Shown: positions 1 through 6,814 of the stretch, one piece after another
How the letters are laid out: each line of letters opens with the position of its first letter
Position numbering within the stretch: position 1 is the stretch's first letter
NCBI GenBank assembly: GCA_024699395.1
Contig: JAILPU010000026.1
Location: 1-7,184, forward strand
Length of the DNA: 7,184 bases
Direction: 5' to 3'
From: Lachnospiraceae bacterium
Lineage (GTDB): Bacteria > Bacillota > Clostridia > Lachnospirales > Lachnospiraceae
The notes under the pieces: generated by a model
What the model saw: only the letters and a program-made list of their open reading frames with translations
Database searches by the model: none
Told to the model about the DNA's origin: nothing
Position numbers and translations under genes: made by a program

Positions 1-870
1 TGTTTTAAGACTTATGATAACCTGTTCCTCTTCGGTGGTGGGCTCCTTCAATTCTATATCGTAAACCTTTCCCAAAGTAAACTTGTTGGAAGAGGATTCT
101 CTTGCCTCTCCGTTTATGGAAAGCTTTGCGTTTTCGGGAGCTCTTGTCACGTTATCCAATCCGAAATAATCCACCGCACCGCTCTTTTTGCTTGTCTTGT
201 CATCGGTAATACTGAACAAAAGGTCGTCTTTCAAAGGCCCTTTTCCGGTATTGTCGGACTCAATCACAAGAGCATAATTTTCATCGTTCTCCATGACGGA
301 GGCTTTAAGACCGATGGAGGAATTGTTGATCAGACGTTTCAGTCGTTCCTGTACCGTCTTGTTGGTGTCCTGACCTGTGACGGTGAACTGAAGCTCGTAA
401 TTCATGTCATTCAGGGCAACGTCAAAGGAGTATGTGTCCGGAGGTATTCCCAGAGCATCGGGCTTTAAGAAGCTTCCGGTGTTCTGCTGCGCAGTGGCAA
501 GGGAGGACACATTTATAAGGTAAGAGGGATCGCCTCTTGCATCTTCATCGCTACCCACGAAGCTTGATACTATACAGTCCGTATCGGAAGAGTAGGCACT
601 TTTTCTGGCAAAAATAGTTTTATCGTCAAGAACCCCAAGCTTTGAAATCGTGTTCTTAAGATTCCTGGCATTGTCTTTAATGTCAACGATATACTGCTGT
701 ATATCCTTATTGGTCACAGGAAGATACAGGGGGGAGTCTTTATTAAGCTTAATAATGGAATTGCAGGTATCCCGAAGCTCGCGCTTATTGTGCGCGTCGA
801 AACGCGTCAGCTCCTTGGGCGCATAGCCGGAAAGATAGTTATTATAGACAGAATTAAGATATGCGCTCAT
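1..870 (-). CDS. fliD: Flagellar filament cap / hook-associated protein 2 (FliD-like), N-terminal part
   Basis: An open frame runs from the ATG at 870 to the window edge (290 codons, no stop), so the C-terminus is missing; FliD proteins are usually about 450-900 residues. The family forms the cap at the tip of the growing flagellum and folds flagellin as it exits. Seen here: an N-terminal helical segment rich in N, Y and K (residues 1-80), a FliD-like stretch YLINVSSLATAQQ (117-129), INNSSIGLKASV (181-192), which matches the family's 'IN...G..A' pattern, and SSSNKFTLGKVYDIEL (259-274), which resembles the family's 'SN.f.v.gv.l.L' block. The start is chosen on a strong AGGAGG (plus-strand 878-883) seven bases upstream. 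The frame is also open back to an ATG at 948 that has only a weak ribosome site. The symbol rests on motif memory; this clostridial branch is divergent. Confidence 0.7.
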   Translation of the reverse strand, partial: MSAYLNSVYNNYLSGYAPKELTRFDAHNKRELRDTCNSIIKLNKDSPLYLPVTNKDIQQYIVDIKDNARNLKNTISKLGVLDDKTIFARKSAYSSDTDCIVSSFVGSDEDARGDPSYLINVSSLATAQQNTGSFLKPDALGIPPDTYSFDVALNDMNYELQFTVTGQDTNKTVQERLKRLINNSSIGLKASVMENDENYALVIESDNTGKGPLKDDLLFSITDDKTSKKSGAVDYFGLDNVTRAPENAKLSINGEARESSSNKFTLGKVYDIELKEPTTEEEQVIISLKT

Positions 871-909
871 TCCGCTCCCTCCTTTCATCCATGAATGTGC
901 GGAAATGAT

Positions 910-948
910 ATGGTAATCCTTTACCATGGTGAAATTCCTTTTCACCAT
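910..948 (-). promoter_or_regulatory. Twin AGGA-loop hairpins in the fliD-like leader (possible CsrA sites)
   Basis: On the minus strand, 948-926 forms ATGGTGAAA / loop AGGAA / TTTCACCAT (9 perfect pairs) and 927-910 forms ATGGTAA / loop AGGA / TTACCAT (7 perfect pairs). The two share a central AT and look like duplicates of each other. Both present A-N-GGA in the loop, the core recognised by CsrA/RsmA proteins, and a third GGA lies in the ribosome site at 878-883. CsrA (with FliW) controls flagellin translation in Firmicutes, so this location suits it. The hairpins are seen directly; the CsrA role is inferred. They could instead be DNA operator palindromes. Confidence 0.45.
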
Positions 949-1133: not shown

Positions 1134-1162
1134 TTGACAAATATGGTACAGTGTACTATCAT
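1134..1162 (+). promoter_or_regulatory. Sigma-A promoter of the nrtR-pncA/nadE-GNAT operon
   Basis: TTGACA (1134-1139), 17-base spacer, TATCAT (1157-1162): perfect -35, 5/6 match at -10, ideal spacing. It lies about 30 bases before the ribosome site (GAGGA, 1186-1190) of the first gene, giving a short leader. A palindrome in its spacer suggests repression. Confidence 0.75.
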
Positions 1163-1196: not shown

Positions 1197-1973
1197 ATGG
1201 CTAAGAAATATAATTTTTCCAGTGAAGAAAAAGCTTTCCTTGAAGCTTATGATCCGGGAGACTATCCCAGACCTGCGGTTACGGCAGACATTGTGGTCTT
1301 CACGGTGGATTCCGACAACGATTTAAATATCCTTCTCATTAAGAGAAAAGATTTCCCCTACAAAGGTTACTGGGCTGTTCCCGGAGGCTTTATGAAAGTG
1401 GGAGAGGAATCCGCAGAGGAGACGGCAGTAAGGCGCCTTCGGGAAGAAACGGGAGCTGAAAATGTGTATCTGAGACAATTGGCTACTTTTTCAAGGCCGG
1501 ATCGGGATCCGAGGATGCATGTGGTTTCGGTGGCTTACATGGCACTGGTTCCATGGGATATGTTAAATATTAAAGCCGGAGAGGGAGCCGAAGAGGCGGG
1601 GCTTTTTAAAATAGGATACGATCTTAACGGATTAAGTTTTAAGAACAGAGAGCATTGTTTGTTGGAGACGGAGCTTGCTTTCGACCATGACAAGATGATT
1701 AAAACGGCTCTTTGGAGACTTCGAAACAGGATTGATTATGAACCTGATGCCTTTTATCTTTTGAAGGACAAGTCCTCATTCACGGTTTACGAACTTCAGA
1801 AGATTTACGAGAGCATCAAGAATAAAACCCTGGATACTTCCAATTTCAGGAAGTTTTTTACCAGAAGTTATATCAACACAGGAACGGTTATATGTAAAAA
1901 TATTAAAAGTAACGGCGCCGGGAAAAGACCTGCAGCGCTGTATGAATACATAGGAAGGAGTGAACTATTATGA
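1197..1973 (+). CDS. nrtR: NrtR-type regulator: Nudix domain fused to winged-helix DNA-binding domain
   Basis: A 258-residue protein. The Nudix domain is at about 26-150, with the box at 63-86 (PGGF...REETG). The linker FDHDK (162-166) and a C-terminal winged-helix region (about 176-252) ending in GKRPAALYEY are typical of NrtR, a repressor of NAD-biosynthesis genes that senses ADP-ribose-like products through its Nudix domain. Against the usual Nudix box there is one extra residue before the helix, and the catalytic-helix 'RE' pair reads RR (79-80). Hydrolase activity is therefore doubtful, as in other NrtRs that only bind ligand. The start at 1197 is chosen for GAGGA six bases upstream; the longer frame from 1131 begins inside the promoter. 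The stop overlaps the next ATG (ATGA), and the NAD genes downstream support the role. An ordinary Nudix hydrolase is the alternative. Confidence 0.82.
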   Translation: MAKKYNFSSEEKAFLEAYDPGDYPRPAVTADIVVFTVDSDNDLNILLIKRKDFPYKGYWAVPGGFMKVGEESAEETAVRRLREETGAENVYLRQLATFSRPDRDPRMHVVSVAYMALVPWDMLNIKAGEGAEEAGLFKIGYDLNGLSFKNREHCLLETELAFDHDKMIKTALWRLRNRIDYEPDAFYLLKDKSSFTVYELQKIYESIKNKTLDTSNFRKFFTRSYINTGTVICKNIKSNGAGKRPAALYEYIGRSELL

Positions 1974-3283
1974 AAAAGCTTTTGGTTGTAGTGGATATGC
2001 AGAATGATTTTGTTACAGGTGCTCTGGGTTCCGATGAGGCCAAGATGCTTGTGGCTCCCATGAAGGAATATATTAAAGCCTTTGACGGAGATGTGGTTTT
2101 TACAAGAGATACTCACACTGAGGATTATATGAATACTCAGGAAGGGAAGAAACTTCCCGTTCCCCACTGTATTAAGGGGACAAAGGGTCACGAGATAGTG
2201 GATGGATTAAAGGAACTTGTTAAAGACGACACAAAAGTATTTGACAAGGAGACCTTCGGAAGTAAGGATTTTGGAAAGTTCATTGCCGACAATAAAGATA
2301 AATACGAGGAGATTTATTTTTGCGGTGTGTGCACCGGTATATGTGTTATCAGTAACGTCCTTATGGCAAAGGCAAATGCCTGCGAAATTCCTGTAAAGGT
2401 ATTGGCCGATCTGTGTGCGTGCGTTACACCCGACAGCCACGAGACAGCCTTGAATGCCATGGAAACATGCCAGGTTGATGTTCTTAACAGAGGCAAGGAA
2501 TACTGGAAGCCTGAGAATCAAAACTTTGATGCTGTAAAAGAGAAGAACAGGATAGTTGAATGGATCAGAGAGTGGTTTAACCAAAACGGCCCCAAGGCCA
2601 ATGCAGTGTTGGGGATTTCGGGCGGTAAGGATTCTACCATTGTTGCGGCCCTTCTTGTTGAGGCGCTGGGTAAGGACAGAGTTTACGGCGTATTGATGCC
2701 CCAGGGTGTTCAGCCGGACATCGATGATTCCAGAAGAGTTGTGGAGACTCTGGGCATCAGAAATACGGTGGTTAACATCGGTAAAACAGTGGATACTTTA
2801 AAAGAGGAACTGGAGGGCGCATGCGGGGAATTGGTTGACAACAGACCTGCTCTCAGCAGGGATACGGGTATCAATATTCCTCCCAGAGTGAGAATGACCA
2901 CCGTTTACGCTGTGGGACAGTCTCTCCCCCAAGGCGCGAGAGTTGCCAATACCTGCAACAAATCGGAAGATTATATAGGATACAGCACCAAGTACGGTGA
3001 TGCTGCGGGAGATTTTGCTCCCATTGCCGATTATTCTGTTACCGAAGTGAGAGCAATCGGTGCGGTTCTCGATTCTCTTAAGGATATTCAGGATCTTGTT
3101 CAGAAGACTCCTTCTGACGGACTTTGCGGTCAGAGTGACGAGGACAGATTCGGCTTTACTTATGATACCCTTGACAGATACATGGCCGGCGAAGAAATCG
3201 ATCCCGAGATTGCTGCCAAGATTGACAGAATGCATATCGCAAATCTCCACAAACTCAGACTTATGCCTGTGTGCAAGAGATAG
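1970..3283 (+). CDS. nadE: Bifunctional nicotinamidase / ammonia-dependent NAD synthetase (PncA-NadE fusion)
   Basis: A 437-residue, two-enzyme cytosolic protein. Residues 1-175 are an isochorismatase-fold nicotinamidase (nicotinamide + water to nicotinate + ammonia): VVDMQNDF with D9, metal ligands D47/H49/H66 (FTRDTH, PHC), K93 and nucleophile C125 (TGICV) form the expected site. Residues about 188-437 are the short NadE (NaAD + ATP + ammonia to NAD): P-loop SGGKDS (217-222), NIPPRVRMT (302-310), NTCNKSEDYIGYSTKYGD (327-344), SDGLCGQSDED (382-392) and GFTYDTLDRY (395-404). There is no glutaminase (CN-hydrolase) domain. No stop or frameshift lies between the halves. The gene is translationally coupled to nrtR (ATGA overlap; AAGGAG at 1955-1960). 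The two middle steps of the pathway (PncB, NadD) are not in the window. The assignment of both domains is firm; how they cooperate is inferred. Confidence 0.93.
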   Translation: MKKLLVVVDMQNDFVTGALGSDEAKMLVAPMKEYIKAFDGDVVFTRDTHTEDYMNTQEGKKLPVPHCIKGTKGHEIVDGLKELVKDDTKVFDKETFGSKDFGKFIADNKDKYEEIYFCGVCTGICVISNVLMAKANACEIPVKVLADLCACVTPDSHETALNAMETCQVDVLNRGKEYWKPENQNFDAVKEKNRIVEWIREWFNQNGPKANAVLGISGGKDSTIVAALLVEALGKDRVYGVLMPQGVQPDIDDSRRVVETLGIRNTVVNIGKTVDTLKEELEGACGELVDNRPALSRDTGINIPPRVRMTTVYAVGQSLPQGARVANTCNKSEDYIGYSTKYGDAAGDFAPIADYSVTEVRAIGAVLDSLKDIQDLVQKTPSDGLCGQSDEDRFGFTYDTLDRYMAGEEIDPEIAAKIDRMHIANLHKLRLMPVCKR

Positions 3284-3298
3284 GATGCCGGAGGATTC

Positions 3299-3775
3299 AT
3301 GGAATTCAGAGGGATAAAAAGAGAGGATGATGAGGTTCTTGCTCATATTATCAGAAGTAATTTAAAAGCCTACGGACTGGATATGCCGGGGACGGCTTAC
3401 TATGATGACAATCTAAATCATCTGAGCGACTATTATCTCAAAGATAAAGACAAGAGATTTTATTACGTAGTGTTGGAGGATGAAAAGGTCATCGGTGGAA
3501 TCGGTTTAGACGAGATTAATCTTTTTGATAATTGTGCAGAACTTCAGAAACTGTATCTTACAGACAGCGCGAAAGGAAGAGGAATCGGATACCGCCTGAT
3601 TGAGAAGATTGAAGATAAGGCCCGCAGTCTTGGATACACACAGATGTATCTTGAGACCCATACCAATTTGGAAGCGGCAATCCATATCTATGAGAAAACA
3701 GGTTACACAGAAATCCCCAAGCCTTCCTTAGCAGTCCACAGCGCAATGAACAAGTTCTTTATCAAGAAACTGTAA
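3299..3775 (+). CDS. GNAT-family N-acetyltransferase
   Basis: A 158-residue, single-domain cytosolic GNAT enzyme that transfers acetyl from acetyl-CoA to an amine; the substrate cannot be told. Motif A is ELQKLYLTDSAKGRGIGYRL (81-100): KGRGIG is the acetyl-CoA pyrophosphate loop, with K in place of the usual R/Q at its first position. The motif B region is LETHTNLEAAIHIYEKTGY (118-136), with the standard 'N..A..lYek.Gy' ending. Length is normal for the family. It starts 15 bases after the pncA-nadE stop with GGAGG (3290-3294) four bases before ATG, and a terminator follows directly, so it is the third gene of the NAD operon. Being in that operon hints at a link to NAD metabolism or protein acetylation state, but that is only context. 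Confidence 0.88.
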   Translation: MEFRGIKREDDEVLAHIIRSNLKAYGLDMPGTAYYDDNLNHLSDYYLKDKDKRFYYVVLEDEKVIGGIGLDEINLFDNCAELQKLYLTDSAKGRGIGYRLIEKIEDKARSLGYTQMYLETHTNLEAAIHIYEKTGYTEIPKPSLAVHSAMNKFFIKKL

Positions 3776-3790
3776 ACATTACTATTTATG

Positions 3791-3828
3791 CAGATGTCGG
3801 AAGCAAACACCTCCGACATCTGTTTTTT
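3791..3828 (+). terminator. Intrinsic terminator of the NAD operon
   Basis: A perfect 11-bp stem CAGATGTCGGA (3791-3801) / TCCGACATCTG (3812-3822) with a 10-nt loop, followed at once by six T (3823-3828), 15 bases after the GNAT stop. Confidence 0.93.
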
Positions 3829-4236: not shown

Positions 4237-4365
4237 GAAATTGAGCGATAGAAGGTTTAATTTTTTTACACCTACATTCTGAAGGTATTTGTCATACATT
4301 TATTTATATGGGCATATATACTCTGTATGTTTTGTGGTTGTATTAACACTTCATGGAGGCAAAAT

Positions 4366-4752
4366 ATGGGATTCGATTTTGATTGGAATTATGTACCTGC
4401 CGGAGCTCCATATGTCACGGTGAGCGATTTGGGGCTTGCGTTTAATAGTCCAGCTATTTCAATGTTGAATAACCCTGAAGAGGTGGTTGTGGGTTTTGAT
4501 GAAAAAAAGCTAACGATAGGAATAAAAGATGCCAAAAACATGGAAAATGTAAAAACATACAAGTTTTACAGCAGAATAAACAATGGATGGATTAGGATAG
4601 GCTGTAAAGATTTTGTGAAGTATCTATCTACGATATCCGGAATTAAGTTTTCGCCTGCAAAAAAATATGTTGCAAGGATGGATTCGGAAGATCAGATATT
4701 ATATATAACTATAAATAGCGAGGAGGTAGATTATAATAATAAAAATGAATAA
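4366..4752 (+). CDS. Hypothetical protein, 128 aa, unrecognised
   Basis: I do not recognise a named family. The start is set at 4366 by GGAGG (4355-4359) six bases upstream; an ATG 39 bases earlier has no ribosome site. The protein has no signal peptide or membrane segment and looks like a mixed alpha/beta soluble protein: strand-like PYVTVSDLGLAF (15-26), a short helix (28-35), two strands EEVVVGFD and KLTIGIKD (38-55), a strand WIRIGCKDFVKYL (75-87), and a closing strand ILYITIN (111-117). The pattern 'V..lGlaFN..a...Ln.PeeV.vgfDek...igI' resembles small proteins I associate with mobile regions of Firmicutes, but no function is known to me. It is monocistronic, with its own promoter before it and a double-hairpin element after it. 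Confidence 0.7.
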   Translation: MGFDFDWNYVPAGAPYVTVSDLGLAFNSPAISMLNNPEEVVVGFDEKKLTIGIKDAKNMENVKTYKFYSRINNGWIRIGCKDFVKYLSTISGIKFSPAKKYVARMDSEDQILYITINSEEVDYNNKNE

Positions 4753-4758
4753 AAACAA

Positions 4759-4797
4759 AAGCACATAAAAACTACCGCAAATAGTTAATATGTGCTT
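4759..4797 (+). repeat. Perfect interrupted palindrome (hairpin 1)
   Basis: AAGCACATA (4759-4767), AA, AACTA (4770-4774), loop CCGCAAA, TAGTT (4782-4786), AA, TATGTGCTT (4789-4797): 14 pairs with a symmetric AA/AA internal loop. No T-run follows, so it is not a classic terminator. It lies seven bases after the 4366 gene. Confidence 0.7.
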
Positions 4798-4813
4798 CGC
4801 CGCGTGCTATAAT
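4785..4813 (+). promoter_or_regulatory. Candidate extended -10 promoter for the 4921-6767 operon
   Basis: TGCTATAAT ends at 4813 (perfect TATAAT at 4808-4813 with the TGn extension). A 17-base spacer puts TTAATA (4785-4790, 4/6) at -35. It would start near 4820, inside the hairpin 2 loop, and transcripts would have a leader of about 100 nt. No better promoter is visible before 4921. Confidence 0.4.
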
Positions 4814-4858
4814 GCACTTTTGAGCAAATCCATTATAGCACACATCCGCGGCATTTTT
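4799..4858 (+). terminator. Hairpin 2 with T-run: likely terminator, containing inverted TGCTATAATG
   Basis: GCCGCG (4799-4804) and TGCTATAATG (4805-4814) pair with CATTATAGCA (4831-4840) and CGCGGC (4847-4852); there is a 16-nt loop and a 6-nt one-sided bulge (4841-4846). ATTTTT follows at 4853-4858. This fits a terminator for the 4366 gene. The inverted copies also place an extended -10 (TGnTATAAT) on each strand. Confidence 0.5.
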
Positions 4859-4920
4859 CAACTAGAACATGTTGACGGGTGTATTTTTGCGCCCAAAAAT
4901 CAAAAAAAGGAGTGCAAAAA

Positions 4921-5574
4921 ATGGATTTATTTAAAATTTCAGAGGAACTATATCGGTACTTGATTGATGCAGGAATATCTTTTACTCCGCAAGGTTATCC
5001 CATCTTCACGGAAGAGATGCTTCTTAAAGAGATACCAGAACAGGTGCTTCCTTTAGGAAAAACACATGTAGCAAAAGATAAAAGTAAGACGTTACTGGTT
5101 TCTTTTACTAACGATGCAATTATATACAAGAGGCTTTTATCCTTAAAAAAAGATGTTCAGATGTATAAGGAATATCTTGGGTTCGGAGGATTTGATTTAA
5201 GCCCAAGAATAAACTGGGATATAAATCTTCAAAGATTTAACATTGGATTAAATCTTATGGCAGATGCGTTTCTTGCTTTAAATGGTGTGAAGATAATGCC
5301 TAACTTTCGGATAGGCTGCTTGAAAACATTAGATGCCTTAAATTGCTATCCGTCAAATACGTGGTATACAGTGGGGGCATTGGGCTGTGCAAAAGGTCAC
5401 GTAAAGATTAATGTTATGTATTTAAGGACAAAACTTATCATCACCAATCCGGATATGCTGATTTATTATGGTAAATTAAAAACAGAATATATGGCTGTCC
5501 TTGAGGAGTATGGAGTTCCGTACAAAGTATACGCAGATTATCAACGCGTTAGTCGCAGAAAGGAGGCTATGTAA
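4921..5574 (+). CDS. DUF4417-like protein, 217 aa
   Basis: A soluble protein without signal peptide or membrane helix. Residues about 60-205 follow the layout I associate with DUF4417, a family of unknown function common in phages and integrative elements: FGGFDLSPRINWD (88-100, like 'fd.vlsPDfS.y'), NLMADAFLALNGVKIMPNFR (111-130, like 'r..gay.Q..Gi.viPnv.W'), TVGALGCAKG (150-159), and NPDMLIYYGK (176-185, like '.P..iivYG'). The usual PD of the first block is PR here. The start at 4921 is chosen for AAGGAG (4907-4912) eight bases upstream; an ATG at 4879 lacks a ribosome site. It is the first gene of the operon; its stop overlaps the next start (TAATG). Family assignment is from pattern memory and moderate; the activity is unknown. 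Confidence 0.6.
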   Translation: MDLFKISEELYRYLIDAGISFTPQGYPIFTEEMLLKEIPEQVLPLGKTHVAKDKSKTLLVSFTNDAIIYKRLLSLKKDVQMYKEYLGFGGFDLSPRINWDINLQRFNIGLNLMADAFLALNGVKIMPNFRIGCLKTLDALNCYPSNTWYTVGALGCAKGHVKINVMYLRTKLIITNPDMLIYYGKLKTEYMAVLEEYGVPYKVYADYQRVSRRKEAM

Positions 5575-5993
5575 TGTCGGATGCTAAGACTGATTATTCG
5601 GATGAAGTAAAAAAACAAAAAGACGCTGCTTTGATTGACTCTGTTATTGCTGACTTGATTCAGCAAGGATATGCCAGAAAGGCAGAATATGGGGCAGATT
5701 GGGAAATTGTTGACATTAACGAAGTTGTTGCTGTGGTGGCGCCCGGAGCAAAGCCTGTTGTGGTTGGGGGGAAGATAATTTATTATAGTGCTGATGGGAC
5801 AAAGGCAGTGGTCGCAGATGTGAGTGGCTACCTAAGGGTTCAAGATTTGACAAAAAAGACTCGTAAGCGACAATATTTGGATAAATATGGGAATGATGCA
5901 CATAATGTTAAGGGGTCAAATGGTAAAATGCGAGGGCGAACTAAAGACGAATACCAACAGGCCACACATTACATTATAAAAAAGAGAAAGTGA
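5574..5993 (+). CDS. Small toxin-tip-like protein with basic C-terminus (putative orphan polymorphic toxin module)
   Basis: 139 residues, no signal peptide. Residues 15-60 are a helical lead-in ending in VVAVVAPGAK. Residues 62-92 have beta-rich character (KIIYYSADGTKAVVADVSGYLRV in part). The last 50 residues carry about 15 K/R against 5 D/E. The closing pattern YLDKYGNDAHNV...GRTKDEYQQATHY resembles C-terminal tips of LXG/RHS-type polymorphic toxins ('yldl.Gn...n....GrtkgEy...THf.i'); H110, R119, R122 and H132 are candidate active residues. There is no LXG, RHS or other delivery domain, so it would be an orphan tip or acts inside the cell. It starts on the previous gene's stop with a strong AAAGGAGG (5559-5566), and two acidic proteins follow directly, the order expected for toxin then immunity. 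Toxicity is inferred; no catalytic family is identified. Confidence 0.5.
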   Translation: MSDAKTDYSDEVKKQKDAALIDSVIADLIQQGYARKAEYGADWEIVDINEVVAVVAPGAKPVVVGGKIIYYSADGTKAVVADVSGYLRVQDLTKKTRKRQYLDKYGNDAHNVKGSNGKMRGRTKDEYQQATHYIIKKRK

Positions 5994-6002
5994 GGACTAA
6001 TA

Positions 6003-6362
6003 ATGTTTGTATATTATTTGAATGTTCCATTGAATGAAACTGGAGTACAAGAACTGGAATCATATGACGATGAATTGGCTAATGTAAAAACATTTGAACT
6101 ATCTGACATGGAGTATGAGAGCCTCAGAAAAAAAGATGGTTTGTTTGAAAGGTTCGATTCGGAACTTGGTACCATTATTGATGTATGTGAAGAAGAGGTT
6201 ATAAAGACGGAACAAATTCCTCATGCTATCGATATACTTGAGAATCATTTAGAAAGTGTTAAAGACAAAACGGAACGCGAATCCTGCATAAAGATTATGG
6301 AAGCTTTAAAAATGGCGCGGGATGCGGATACTTTTCTGGAAATAGACATTTATCTGGAGTAA
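6003..6362 (+). CDS. Acidic small protein, putative immunity protein (119 aa)
   Basis: No named family recognised. Seen: 119 residues, very acidic (about 31 D/E against 12 K/R), soluble, no signal peptide. A central ELGTIIDVCEEEVIKTEQI (54-72) is followed by helices with AIDILENHLESV (75-86) and IKIMEALKMARDADTFLEI (96-114), a layout common in small immunity-type proteins of Firmicutes as I remember them. It starts nine bases after the basic 5574 protein, using GAGG (5992-5995) that overlaps that gene's stop. Opposite charge and gene order make it the best candidate for an antidote to the 5574 product. That is inference from context, since nothing in the sequence proves binding. Confidence 0.55.
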   Translation: MFVYYLNVPLNETGVQELESYDDELANVKTFELSDMEYESLRKKDGLFERFDSELGTIIDVCEEEVIKTEQIPHAIDILENHLESVKDKTERESCIKIMEALKMARDADTFLEIDIYLE

Positions 6363-6368
6363 GAGAAT

Positions 6369-6767
6369 ATGAGTAAATATTGTTATCAAAAATTTCTTCT
6401 TAACTGTGAGTATGATGATGTAGATTTGAATCACATACAGACATATCAGGACAATCTTGAATTTGTCCCCGAATTGGGAGAAAATAATACTATTTTTGAT
6501 GTTGGCGGAGAAATTGTCAGAAAAGTAAAATTGTCGGACATAGATGTTTCTGTTGATACTATCGAAGATTGGGAGGCTTTTCTTGGTAAAATGACAGGGG
6601 TAGATGAGATTGTTATCATACAGGATATGTGTGACTCTGCCAATAAGGTGATAGTGGATTATAGAATTGCTACACTTAAGGCATACATATATCGGATGAA
6701 AAGCGTATTAAAAGATCTCGAAATATATTTTGCGCACGAAGTTAGTGAATATAAAATGCCTATTTAA
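6369..6767 (+). CDS. Second acidic small protein, putative immunity-like (132 aa)
   Basis: No named family recognised. 132 residues, acidic (about 25 D/E against 13 K/R), soluble. It shares features with the preceding protein: a 'nTIfDV..E.v.K' segment (40-54 here, TIIDVCEEEVIK there), a middle segment of short alternating elements, and a closing helix with LEIYF (117-121; LEIDIYL there). The two may be distant paralogs, though identity is low. Its ribosome site GGAG (6356-6359) lies in the last codons of the previous gene, with only six bases between the genes, so they are co-translated. The operon terminator follows. Tandem immunity-like genes after one toxin-like gene are typical of polymorphic toxin loci, where extra ones guard against other strains' toxins; this is inferred. 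Confidence 0.5.
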   Translation: MSKYCYQKFLLNCEYDDVDLNHIQTYQDNLEFVPELGENNTIFDVGGEIVRKVKLSDIDVSVDTIEDWEAFLGKMTGVDEIVIIQDMCDSANKVIVDYRIATLKAYIYRMKSVLKDLEIYFAHEVSEYKMPI

Positions 6768-6790: not shown

Positions 6791-6814
6791 AAAAGAACCC
6801 TTCGGGGTTCTTTT
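6791..6814 (+). terminator. UUCG-tetraloop terminator
   Basis: AAAAGAACCC (6791-6800), loop TTCG, GGGTTCTTTT (6805-6814): a perfect 10-bp stem with the very stable C(UUCG)G loop and terminal T/A runs, so it can work on both strands. It lies 23 bases after the last gene of the 4921-6767 operon. Confidence 0.92.

What the first reader, a model, noticed from the sequence alone, without database searches (positions are those of the whole stretch)
1970..3283. Nicotinamidase fused to ammonia-dependent NadE: possible direct recycling of the amide nitrogen
The N-terminal half releases ammonia from nicotinamide and the C-terminal half needs ammonia to amidate NaAD. Glutamine-dependent NadE carries an N-terminal glutaminase that feeds ammonia through a tunnel. 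Here a nicotinamidase occupies that place, and the NadE is the short ammonia-only kind. The fusion joins the first and last steps of nicotinamide salvage, which are not consecutive by carbon substrate but are linked by ammonia. It could act in effect as a nicotinamide-to-NaAD amide transferase, useful when ammonia is scarce. Both active sites look intact (D9/K93/C125; SGGKDS).
Basis: partly seen in the sequence, partly recalled or inferred. Interest (0 to 1): 0.72.

Follow-up and report, generated by a model that had tools for sequence, protein, structure and literature searches.

The report
Nicotinamidase fused to NAD synthetase
One bacterial gene encodes both the enzyme domain predicted to release ammonia from nicotinamide and the one predicted to spend ammonia when finishing NAD; relatives suggest this pairing likely fused several separate times, so the ammonia would be made beside its consumer, although no sign of a built-in tunnel was found.

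Summary
In detail: window 1970-3283 is one unbroken 437-aa frame, PncA (PF00857, 4-172) then short ammonia-type NadE (PF02540, 193-428), catalytic residues intact. It follows an nrtR-like gene with an ATGA overlap. It is the only full NadE and the only isochorismatase-family gene found in its 76%-complete genome; pncB and a nadD-like gene lie together elsewhere.

The fusion is rare but recurrent: 27 PncA-NadE proteins and one reversed. In genomes it was unbroken in 1 of 397 (family), 3 of 391 (class), 1 of 398 (phylum) and 4 of 16 (another family). In 24 of 80 related loci nadE lies near pncA as a separate gene, in 17 directly after it. A paired-gene tree needs nine changes between fused and separate; one fused clade is rejected (AU p = 0.0003). 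Two congeners have the long NadE instead (glutaminase domain confirmed in one).

Rigid channelling is not supported: linkers vary by 35 residues, two models show confident folds but low pTM (0.62, 0.61), and no residue sets fused proteins apart above chance. Most likely this is a tethered, co-expressed bifunctional enzyme sharing ammonia by diffusion. I found no published description in seven searches of open papers.

The parts
1134..1162 (+). sigma-70-like promoter TTGACA-N17-TATCAT ahead of the nrtR-like gene
   Evidence: 11 of 12 consensus matches; control: 8 promoter-like sites in the region against a shuffle mean of 5.7, sd 2.0; a consensus match only
1146..1156 (.). palindrome GTACAGTGTAC between the two promoter hexamers, candidate operator for NrtR
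   Evidence: found with up to 2 mismatches at this place on both strands; 51 of 200 shuffles had as many matches, so not significant by itself; not found near pncB; regulatory role inferred
1197..1973 (+). nrtR-like Nudix-winged-helix regulator, 258 aa
   Evidence: PF00293 E 8.4e-17 and PF21906 NrtR_WHD E 5.5e-10; NCBIfam NF050029 147 bits, below its cut-off of 400
1970..1973 (+). ATGA: stop of the nrtR-like gene overlaps start of the fusion, with GGAAGGAG ahead of it
   Evidence: read from sequence
1970..2497 (+). PncA (nicotinamidase) domain, residues 1-176; D9 1994-1996, K93 2246-2248, C125 2342-2344
2498..2521 (+). linker, residues 177-184, low model confidence at 178-184
   Evidence: pLDDT under 50
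2522..3283 (+). NadE (ammonia-type NAD synthetase) domain, residues 185-437, plus stop; SGGKDS 2618-2635
3299..3775 (+). GNAT-family acetyltransferase gene 15 nt downstream, probably same transcript
   Evidence: PF00583 E 2e-18; co-transcription inferred from spacing
3791..3828 (+). terminator-like hairpin CAGATGTCGGA / TCCGACATCTG followed by TTTTTT, likely end of the transcript
   Evidence: read by eye from sequence; its 10-nt loop lies outside the limits of the scan, which did not report it

Best explanation
The gene at 1970-3283 encodes one chain with a nicotinamidase (PncA) domain followed by a short ammonia-type NAD synthetase (NadE) domain, which likely arose by loss of the stop codon between neighbouring pncA and nadE genes and is predicted to act as a flexibly tethered two-site enzyme whose sites would share ammonia by diffusion. 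Shown: one open frame, both domains, intact catalytic residues, an NrtR-type gene overlapping its start, only full NadE and only PF00857 gene found in the (incomplete) genome, repeated appearance of the fusion, and the neighbouring unfused gene pair in part of the relatives. Inferred: the PncA half makes nicotinate and ammonia; PncB and the NadD-like protein, encoded together elsewhere, turn nicotinate into NaAD; the NadE half amidates NaAD to NAD. The main gain is likely fixed 1:1 production of the first and last salvage enzymes under one regulator; a local ammonia supply is a possible extra, without a rigid tunnel.
For: Domains and residues. Genome: only NadE match over a full domain, only PF00857 match, PncB on contig 324 with a CTP_transf_like, NadD-like ORF overlapping its end. 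Recurrence: 27 forward and 1 reversed fusion. Paired-gene tree, 27 fused and 35 separate rows: 9 changes, 8-10 in the bootstrap range, 0% of 200 bootstrap trees with one fused clade; AU p 0.0003, and 0.0008 without P0001, P0043 and P0067. Precursor state: 17 of 80 named loci have nadE directly after pncA, 7 more have it within about 2.7 kb on the same strand; at 23 of 29 junctions examined the likely nadE start lies 2-37 nt after the pncA stop, and many NadE proteins begin MFDA or MFNA. Eight of 27 fused proteins keep that Met inside the chain (P0002, P0008, P0222, P0223, P0224, P0227, P0229, P0231). Flexible join: distance from PncA end to the SGG loop 37-72 residues; pTM 0.62 and 0.61 with mean pLDDT 85 and 89.
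Against: No activity of either half has been measured. The PncA half scores only 22 bits against NCBIfam's nicotinamidase equivalog (cut-off 174), so its substrate rests on fold, residues and context. The genome is 76% complete, so a second NadE or PncA could be missing. In the PncA tree and the paired tree the well-supported branches alone force few changes (1 and 2), and one early fusion with many splits is not formally excluded. In 56 of 80 loci no nadE was seen within the flanks held (some flanks are cut by contig ends), so adjacency is a minority state in that set. The paired-gene tree gives the window protein a long branch and an unsure place. A diffusion-only view does not explain why fusion recurs rather than mere adjacency.
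Confidence: 0.6

Rival explanations
1. Nicotinamide-dependent NAD synthetase: the PncA half replaces the glutaminase and hands its ammonia straight to the NadE half, through a passage formed in the oligomer, so the amide nitrogen of nicotinamide ends up in NAD.
For: Congeners G022 and G344 have NadE ORFs of 637 and 671 aa, glutaminase domain confirmed by Pfam in G022; the five fused genomes show no other full NadE domain; fusion recurs and one reversed fusion exists; the two reactions share only ammonia.
Against: Linker length varies by 35 residues and order can be reversed; no fused-specific positions above chance (largest difference 0.51 against a null 95% of 0.62); low pTM with good pLDDT; two other enzymes act between the two steps. 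Oligomers could not be modelled.
Confidence: 0.15
2. Neutral accident: abutting, often in-frame genes fuse by one or two mutations, work no better than separate proteins and are tolerated.
For: Ten of 29 junctions examined have the two genes in the same frame with one or two stops and 3-33 nt between; the fusion is rare (1 of 397, 3 of 391, 1 of 398 genomes); no fused-specific residues above chance.
Against: The fusion is present in 4 of 7 genomes of one genus and in a nine-protein group, eight of which were aligned, at 72-96% identity to P0016; reversed order in P0033 cannot come from stop loss in the pncA-nadE order, though it rests on one sequence from a 1,621-bp contig.
Confidence: 0.2
3. 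Assembly or sequencing error joins two adjacent genes, at least in some of the records.
For: Many fused proteins come from one contig only, the window's own included, and one base can separate the two states in abutting pairs.
Against: The window linker reads through in frame with no start codon left; P0224 has 22 members on 5 contigs, P0011 6 contigs, P0067 4 contigs; four genomes of one genus share it.
Confidence: 0.05

Closest known systems
Ammonia-dependent NAD synthetase, NadE(NH3), e.g. B. subtilis 1nsy, P. horikoshii 2e18
   Different: Carries an N-terminal nicotinamidase domain on the same chain
Glutamine-dependent NAD synthetase, NadE(Gln)
   Same: An N-terminal cysteine amidase that frees ammonia sits on the same chain as the synthetase; present in congener G022
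   Different: Its amidase is a nitrilase-fold glutaminase (PF00795) with a described ammonia tunnel (PMC7196632, passages seen); here an isochorismatase-fold nicotinamidase, no tunnel shown
Nicotinamidase PncA, e.g. P. horikoshii 1ilw, B. subtilis 6a8l, S. pneumoniae 3o90
   Different: Those are separate proteins
pncA-nadE neighbour genes in Ruminococcus and Lachnospiraceae relatives
   Same: Same order, same families, near-abutting, likely the precursor
   Different: Separate proteins with a stop codon between

Membership tests
NadE(NH3), ammonia-dependent NAD synthetase | Complete NAD_synthase domain with ATP-binding SGG.DS loop | tested here: met
   PF02540 149.6 bits against cut-off 21; TIGR00552 143.8 against 63.65
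NadE(NH3), ammonia-dependent NAD synthetase | No glutaminase (CN_hydrolase) domain | tested here: met
   No PF00795 match listed at E up to 1
NadE(NH3), ammonia-dependent NAD synthetase | Amidates NaAD with free ammonia | not testable with these tools
   needs an assay
Nicotinamidase PncA | Isochorismatase-like fold and domain | tested here: met
Nicotinamidase PncA | Asp-Lys-Cys triad and metal ligands | tested here: met
   D9, K93, C125, D47, H49, E58, H66 identical in 27 fused and 35 separate rows; alignment to solved PncA, K93 and E58 clearest against streptococcal 3s2s; the roles of these positions are recalled from the literature
Nicotinamidase PncA | Reaches NCBIfam equivalog NF008623 | tested here: not met
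   22 bits against 174; in my reading that model covers one branch of PncA, so this limits the name, not the fold
Nicotinamidase PncA | Hydrolyses nicotinamide | not testable with these tools
   context only: NrtR-like gene, NadE fusion, pncB elsewhere
NadE(Gln), glutamine-dependent NAD synthetase | N-terminal nitrilase-fold glutaminase | tested here: not met
   PF00795 not matched in the fusion, matched in congener G022
Ammonia-channelling two-domain enzyme | Fixed domain arrangement with a passage between sites | tested here: inconclusive
   pTM 0.62 and 0.61, loose linkers, no fused-specific residues above chance speak against; oligomers and coordinates not available

The most novel reading that the evidence does not exclude
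A third class of NAD synthetase, fed by nicotinamide rather than free ammonia or glutamine: the nicotinamidase half has taken the glutaminase's place, and the amide nitrogen removed in the first salvage step is put back in the last one on the same protein, an arrangement reached independently several times and in both domain orders.
Probability: 0.15. Interest if true: 0.82.

Novelty: new variant of a known kind. Interest (0 to 1): 0.52.

Why it matters
NAD synthetases are described as two classes, fed by ammonia or by glutamine (PMC7196632, passages). A recurrent fusion of nicotinamidase to the ammonia class makes a direct question testable: can a salvage pathway recycle its own amide nitrogen, and does joining non-consecutive steps pay? 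It also offers perhaps ten natural replicates, with closely related unfused gene pairs as controls.

Tried and rejected
Rigid channel: two AlphaFold2 models gave confident domains and low pTM; no coordinates or inter-domain error were returned, so distances between C125 and the NadE site could not be measured. A scan for residues that mark fused proteins gave nothing above chance (null: 200 draws of ten of the 35 separate rows). Structure matches cover one domain at a time; rows whose range spans both (3n05, 3ilv) align 223 and 230 residues, about the size of the NadE half, and are not read as a shared two-domain layout.

Full-length matches that looked fused (G448, G574, G456, G413, G716, G491) proved to be two genes in one frame with one or more stops between; they were dropped from the fused count. 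G615 is cut by a contig end and also has stops between; not counted. P0132, a hit to the fused profile, is a tandem of two PncA-like domains behind a lipoprotein-like signal (my reading of its sequence), not a fusion with NadE. P0033 was left out of the paired-gene tree because its halves are in the other order.

NrtR operator: the palindrome at 1146-1156 was not found near pncB with up to 2 mismatches (the one hit lies elsewhere), and shuffles often have as many hits, so a shared regulon is not shown.

Literature: searches listed no paper that I could see describing this fusion; passages were seen in PMC9316036, PMC6593275, PMC7196632 and PMC3855486; the other papers were seen as listings only. 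Subscription papers and preprints are not held, and reviews of microbial NAD metabolism that I recall were not seen, so 'unpublished' is not claimed.

Full report

Surroundings. Directly upstream, 1197-1973 encodes a Nudix plus winged-helix protein of the NrtR kind (PF00293, PF21906); its TGA overlaps the ATG of the fusion as ATGA, with GGAAGGAG ahead. A promoter-like site at 1134-1162 holds a palindrome between its hexamers; neither stands out clearly from shuffled sequence. A GNAT gene follows after 15 nt, and a hairpin with a run of T follows that, read by eye. Control by NrtR is inferred.

The host's pathway. In the window's own genome, 1.9 Mb, 333 contigs and 76% complete, the fused gene gave the only full NadE match (three weaker matches cover parts of the profile and are probably other ATP-pyrophosphatases, not checked) and the only PF00857 match. 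PncB was found on contig 324, overlapping a CTP_transf_like gene of NadD type. So nicotinamide to nicotinate (PncA half), to NaMN (PncB), to NaAD (NadD-like) and to NAD (NadE half) is complete on paper. In the same genus, G022 (100% complete) has a 637-aa NadE with CN_hydrolase and NAD_synthase domains and a lone PncA on another contig; G344 (99% complete) has a similar 671-aa NadE (not scanned with Pfam). As far as the incomplete genome shows, this species differs from both congeners in NadE type.

How widespread. Searches of about 5.8 billion proteins scored up to 8000 candidates each and listed the best 120. Of 322 proteins so listed, 27 have PncA then NadE and one, P0033, has NadE then PncA. 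P0033 is a single sequence from a 1,621-bp contig. These are lower bounds. In whole genomes an unbroken fusion was found in 1 of 397 of the family, 3 of 391 of the class, 1 of 398 of the phylum and 4 of 16 of the family of G521, the four all in one genus of seven genomes. In the three large samples at most four candidates per genome were scored. The samples overlap: G000 is in the first three, and G521 and G764 in both the class sample and their family. In that family the other NadE frames are long (640-729 aa, not checked for a glutaminase) in six genomes and short in two, and four genomes showed none at E 1e-15.

Where the fusion comes from. None of the 80 is fused. In 17 of 80 nadE follows pncA directly on the same strand, in 7 more it lies within about 2.7 kb, and in 56 none was seen in the flanks held, some of which are cut short. 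Eight of 27 fused proteins still carry that Met-Phe-Asp/Asn start inside the chain. Loss of the pncA stop is thus the simplest origin. The window protein has no such Met; its linker reads through in frame.

How often it happened. On the NadE tree the fused state needs 11 changes, at least 8 by well-supported branches; the window protein groups with a separate NadE, P0006 (quick tree). The PncA tree also needs 11, but well-supported branches force only 1. The tree of both halves together (62 rows: 27 fused, 35 separate pairs) needs 9 changes, 8-10 over the bootstrap range, with 2 forced by well-supported branches. The AU test rejects a single fused clade, p = 0.0003, and p = 0.0008 without P0001, P0043 and P0067. 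Counts of changes cannot tell gain from loss; retained start motifs favour repeated gain.

Does it channel ammonia? Four results speak against a fixed tunnel. The distance from the end of PncA to the SGG loop ranges from 37 to 72 residues, and from 39 to 72 within one group. Models of the window protein and of P0016 have mean pLDDT 85 and 89 but pTM 0.62 and 0.61, the pattern expected if the two domains are not held in one arrangement (my inference, since no inter-domain error is returned). The strongest column difference between ten fused lineages and 35 separate pairs is 0.51, against a null mean of 0.49 and 95% of 0.62. Domain order can be reversed. None of this excludes hand-over in an oligomer or a local rise in ammonia. 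For it stand the recurrence itself and the contrast with the glutaminase-bearing NadE of the congener.

Reading. I commit to a flexibly tethered two-site enzyme, co-expressed in a probable NrtR operon, with ammonia shared by diffusion. True nitrogen hand-over is the bold alternative at 0.15. PMC7196632 (passages) describes two NadE classes, ammonia- and glutamine-dependent, the latter with a tunnel; PMC9316036 and PMC6593275 (passages) treat PncA and NadE as separate enzymes. Seven searches listed no paper that I could see describing the fusion among the open papers held.

Noticed in passing
P0033 (442 aa, from a 1,621-bp contig): Reversed fusion, NadE then PncA; single sequence, but if confirmed it suggests that linkage in either order is favoured.
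   Followed up: partly
L117, L118, L119, L122, L124 junctions: Separate pncA and nadE lie in the same frame with a single TAA and 3-18 nt between them, one mutation away from fusion.
   Followed up: yes
L156 (G022) and L155 (G344): Two same-genus genomes have long NadE proteins (glutaminase domain confirmed in G022) where the window species has the fused short type.
   Followed up: yes
L161 4688-5545 (-): In G521 the fused gene is followed on the same strand by an overlapping CTP_transf_like (NadM/NadR-like) frame, an NAD operon around the fusion.
   Followed up: partly
window 1134-1162: Promoter-like site with palindrome GTACAGTGTAC between its hexamers ahead of the nrtR-like gene; candidate NrtR operator, not seen near pncB.
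   Followed up: partly
window 1-948 (-): 316-aa frame running off the window with no Pfam family above cut-off (best Triabin E 0.0047).
   Followed up: no
window 4327-6767 (+): Row of five small frames without Pfam families above cut-off; one (4879-5574) weakly resembles DUF4417. A terminator-like hairpin follows near 6791-6814, read by eye.
   Followed up: no
P0132 (463 aa): Tandem of two PncA-like domains behind a lipoprotein-like signal, a possible exported nicotinamidase-like protein.
   Followed up: no
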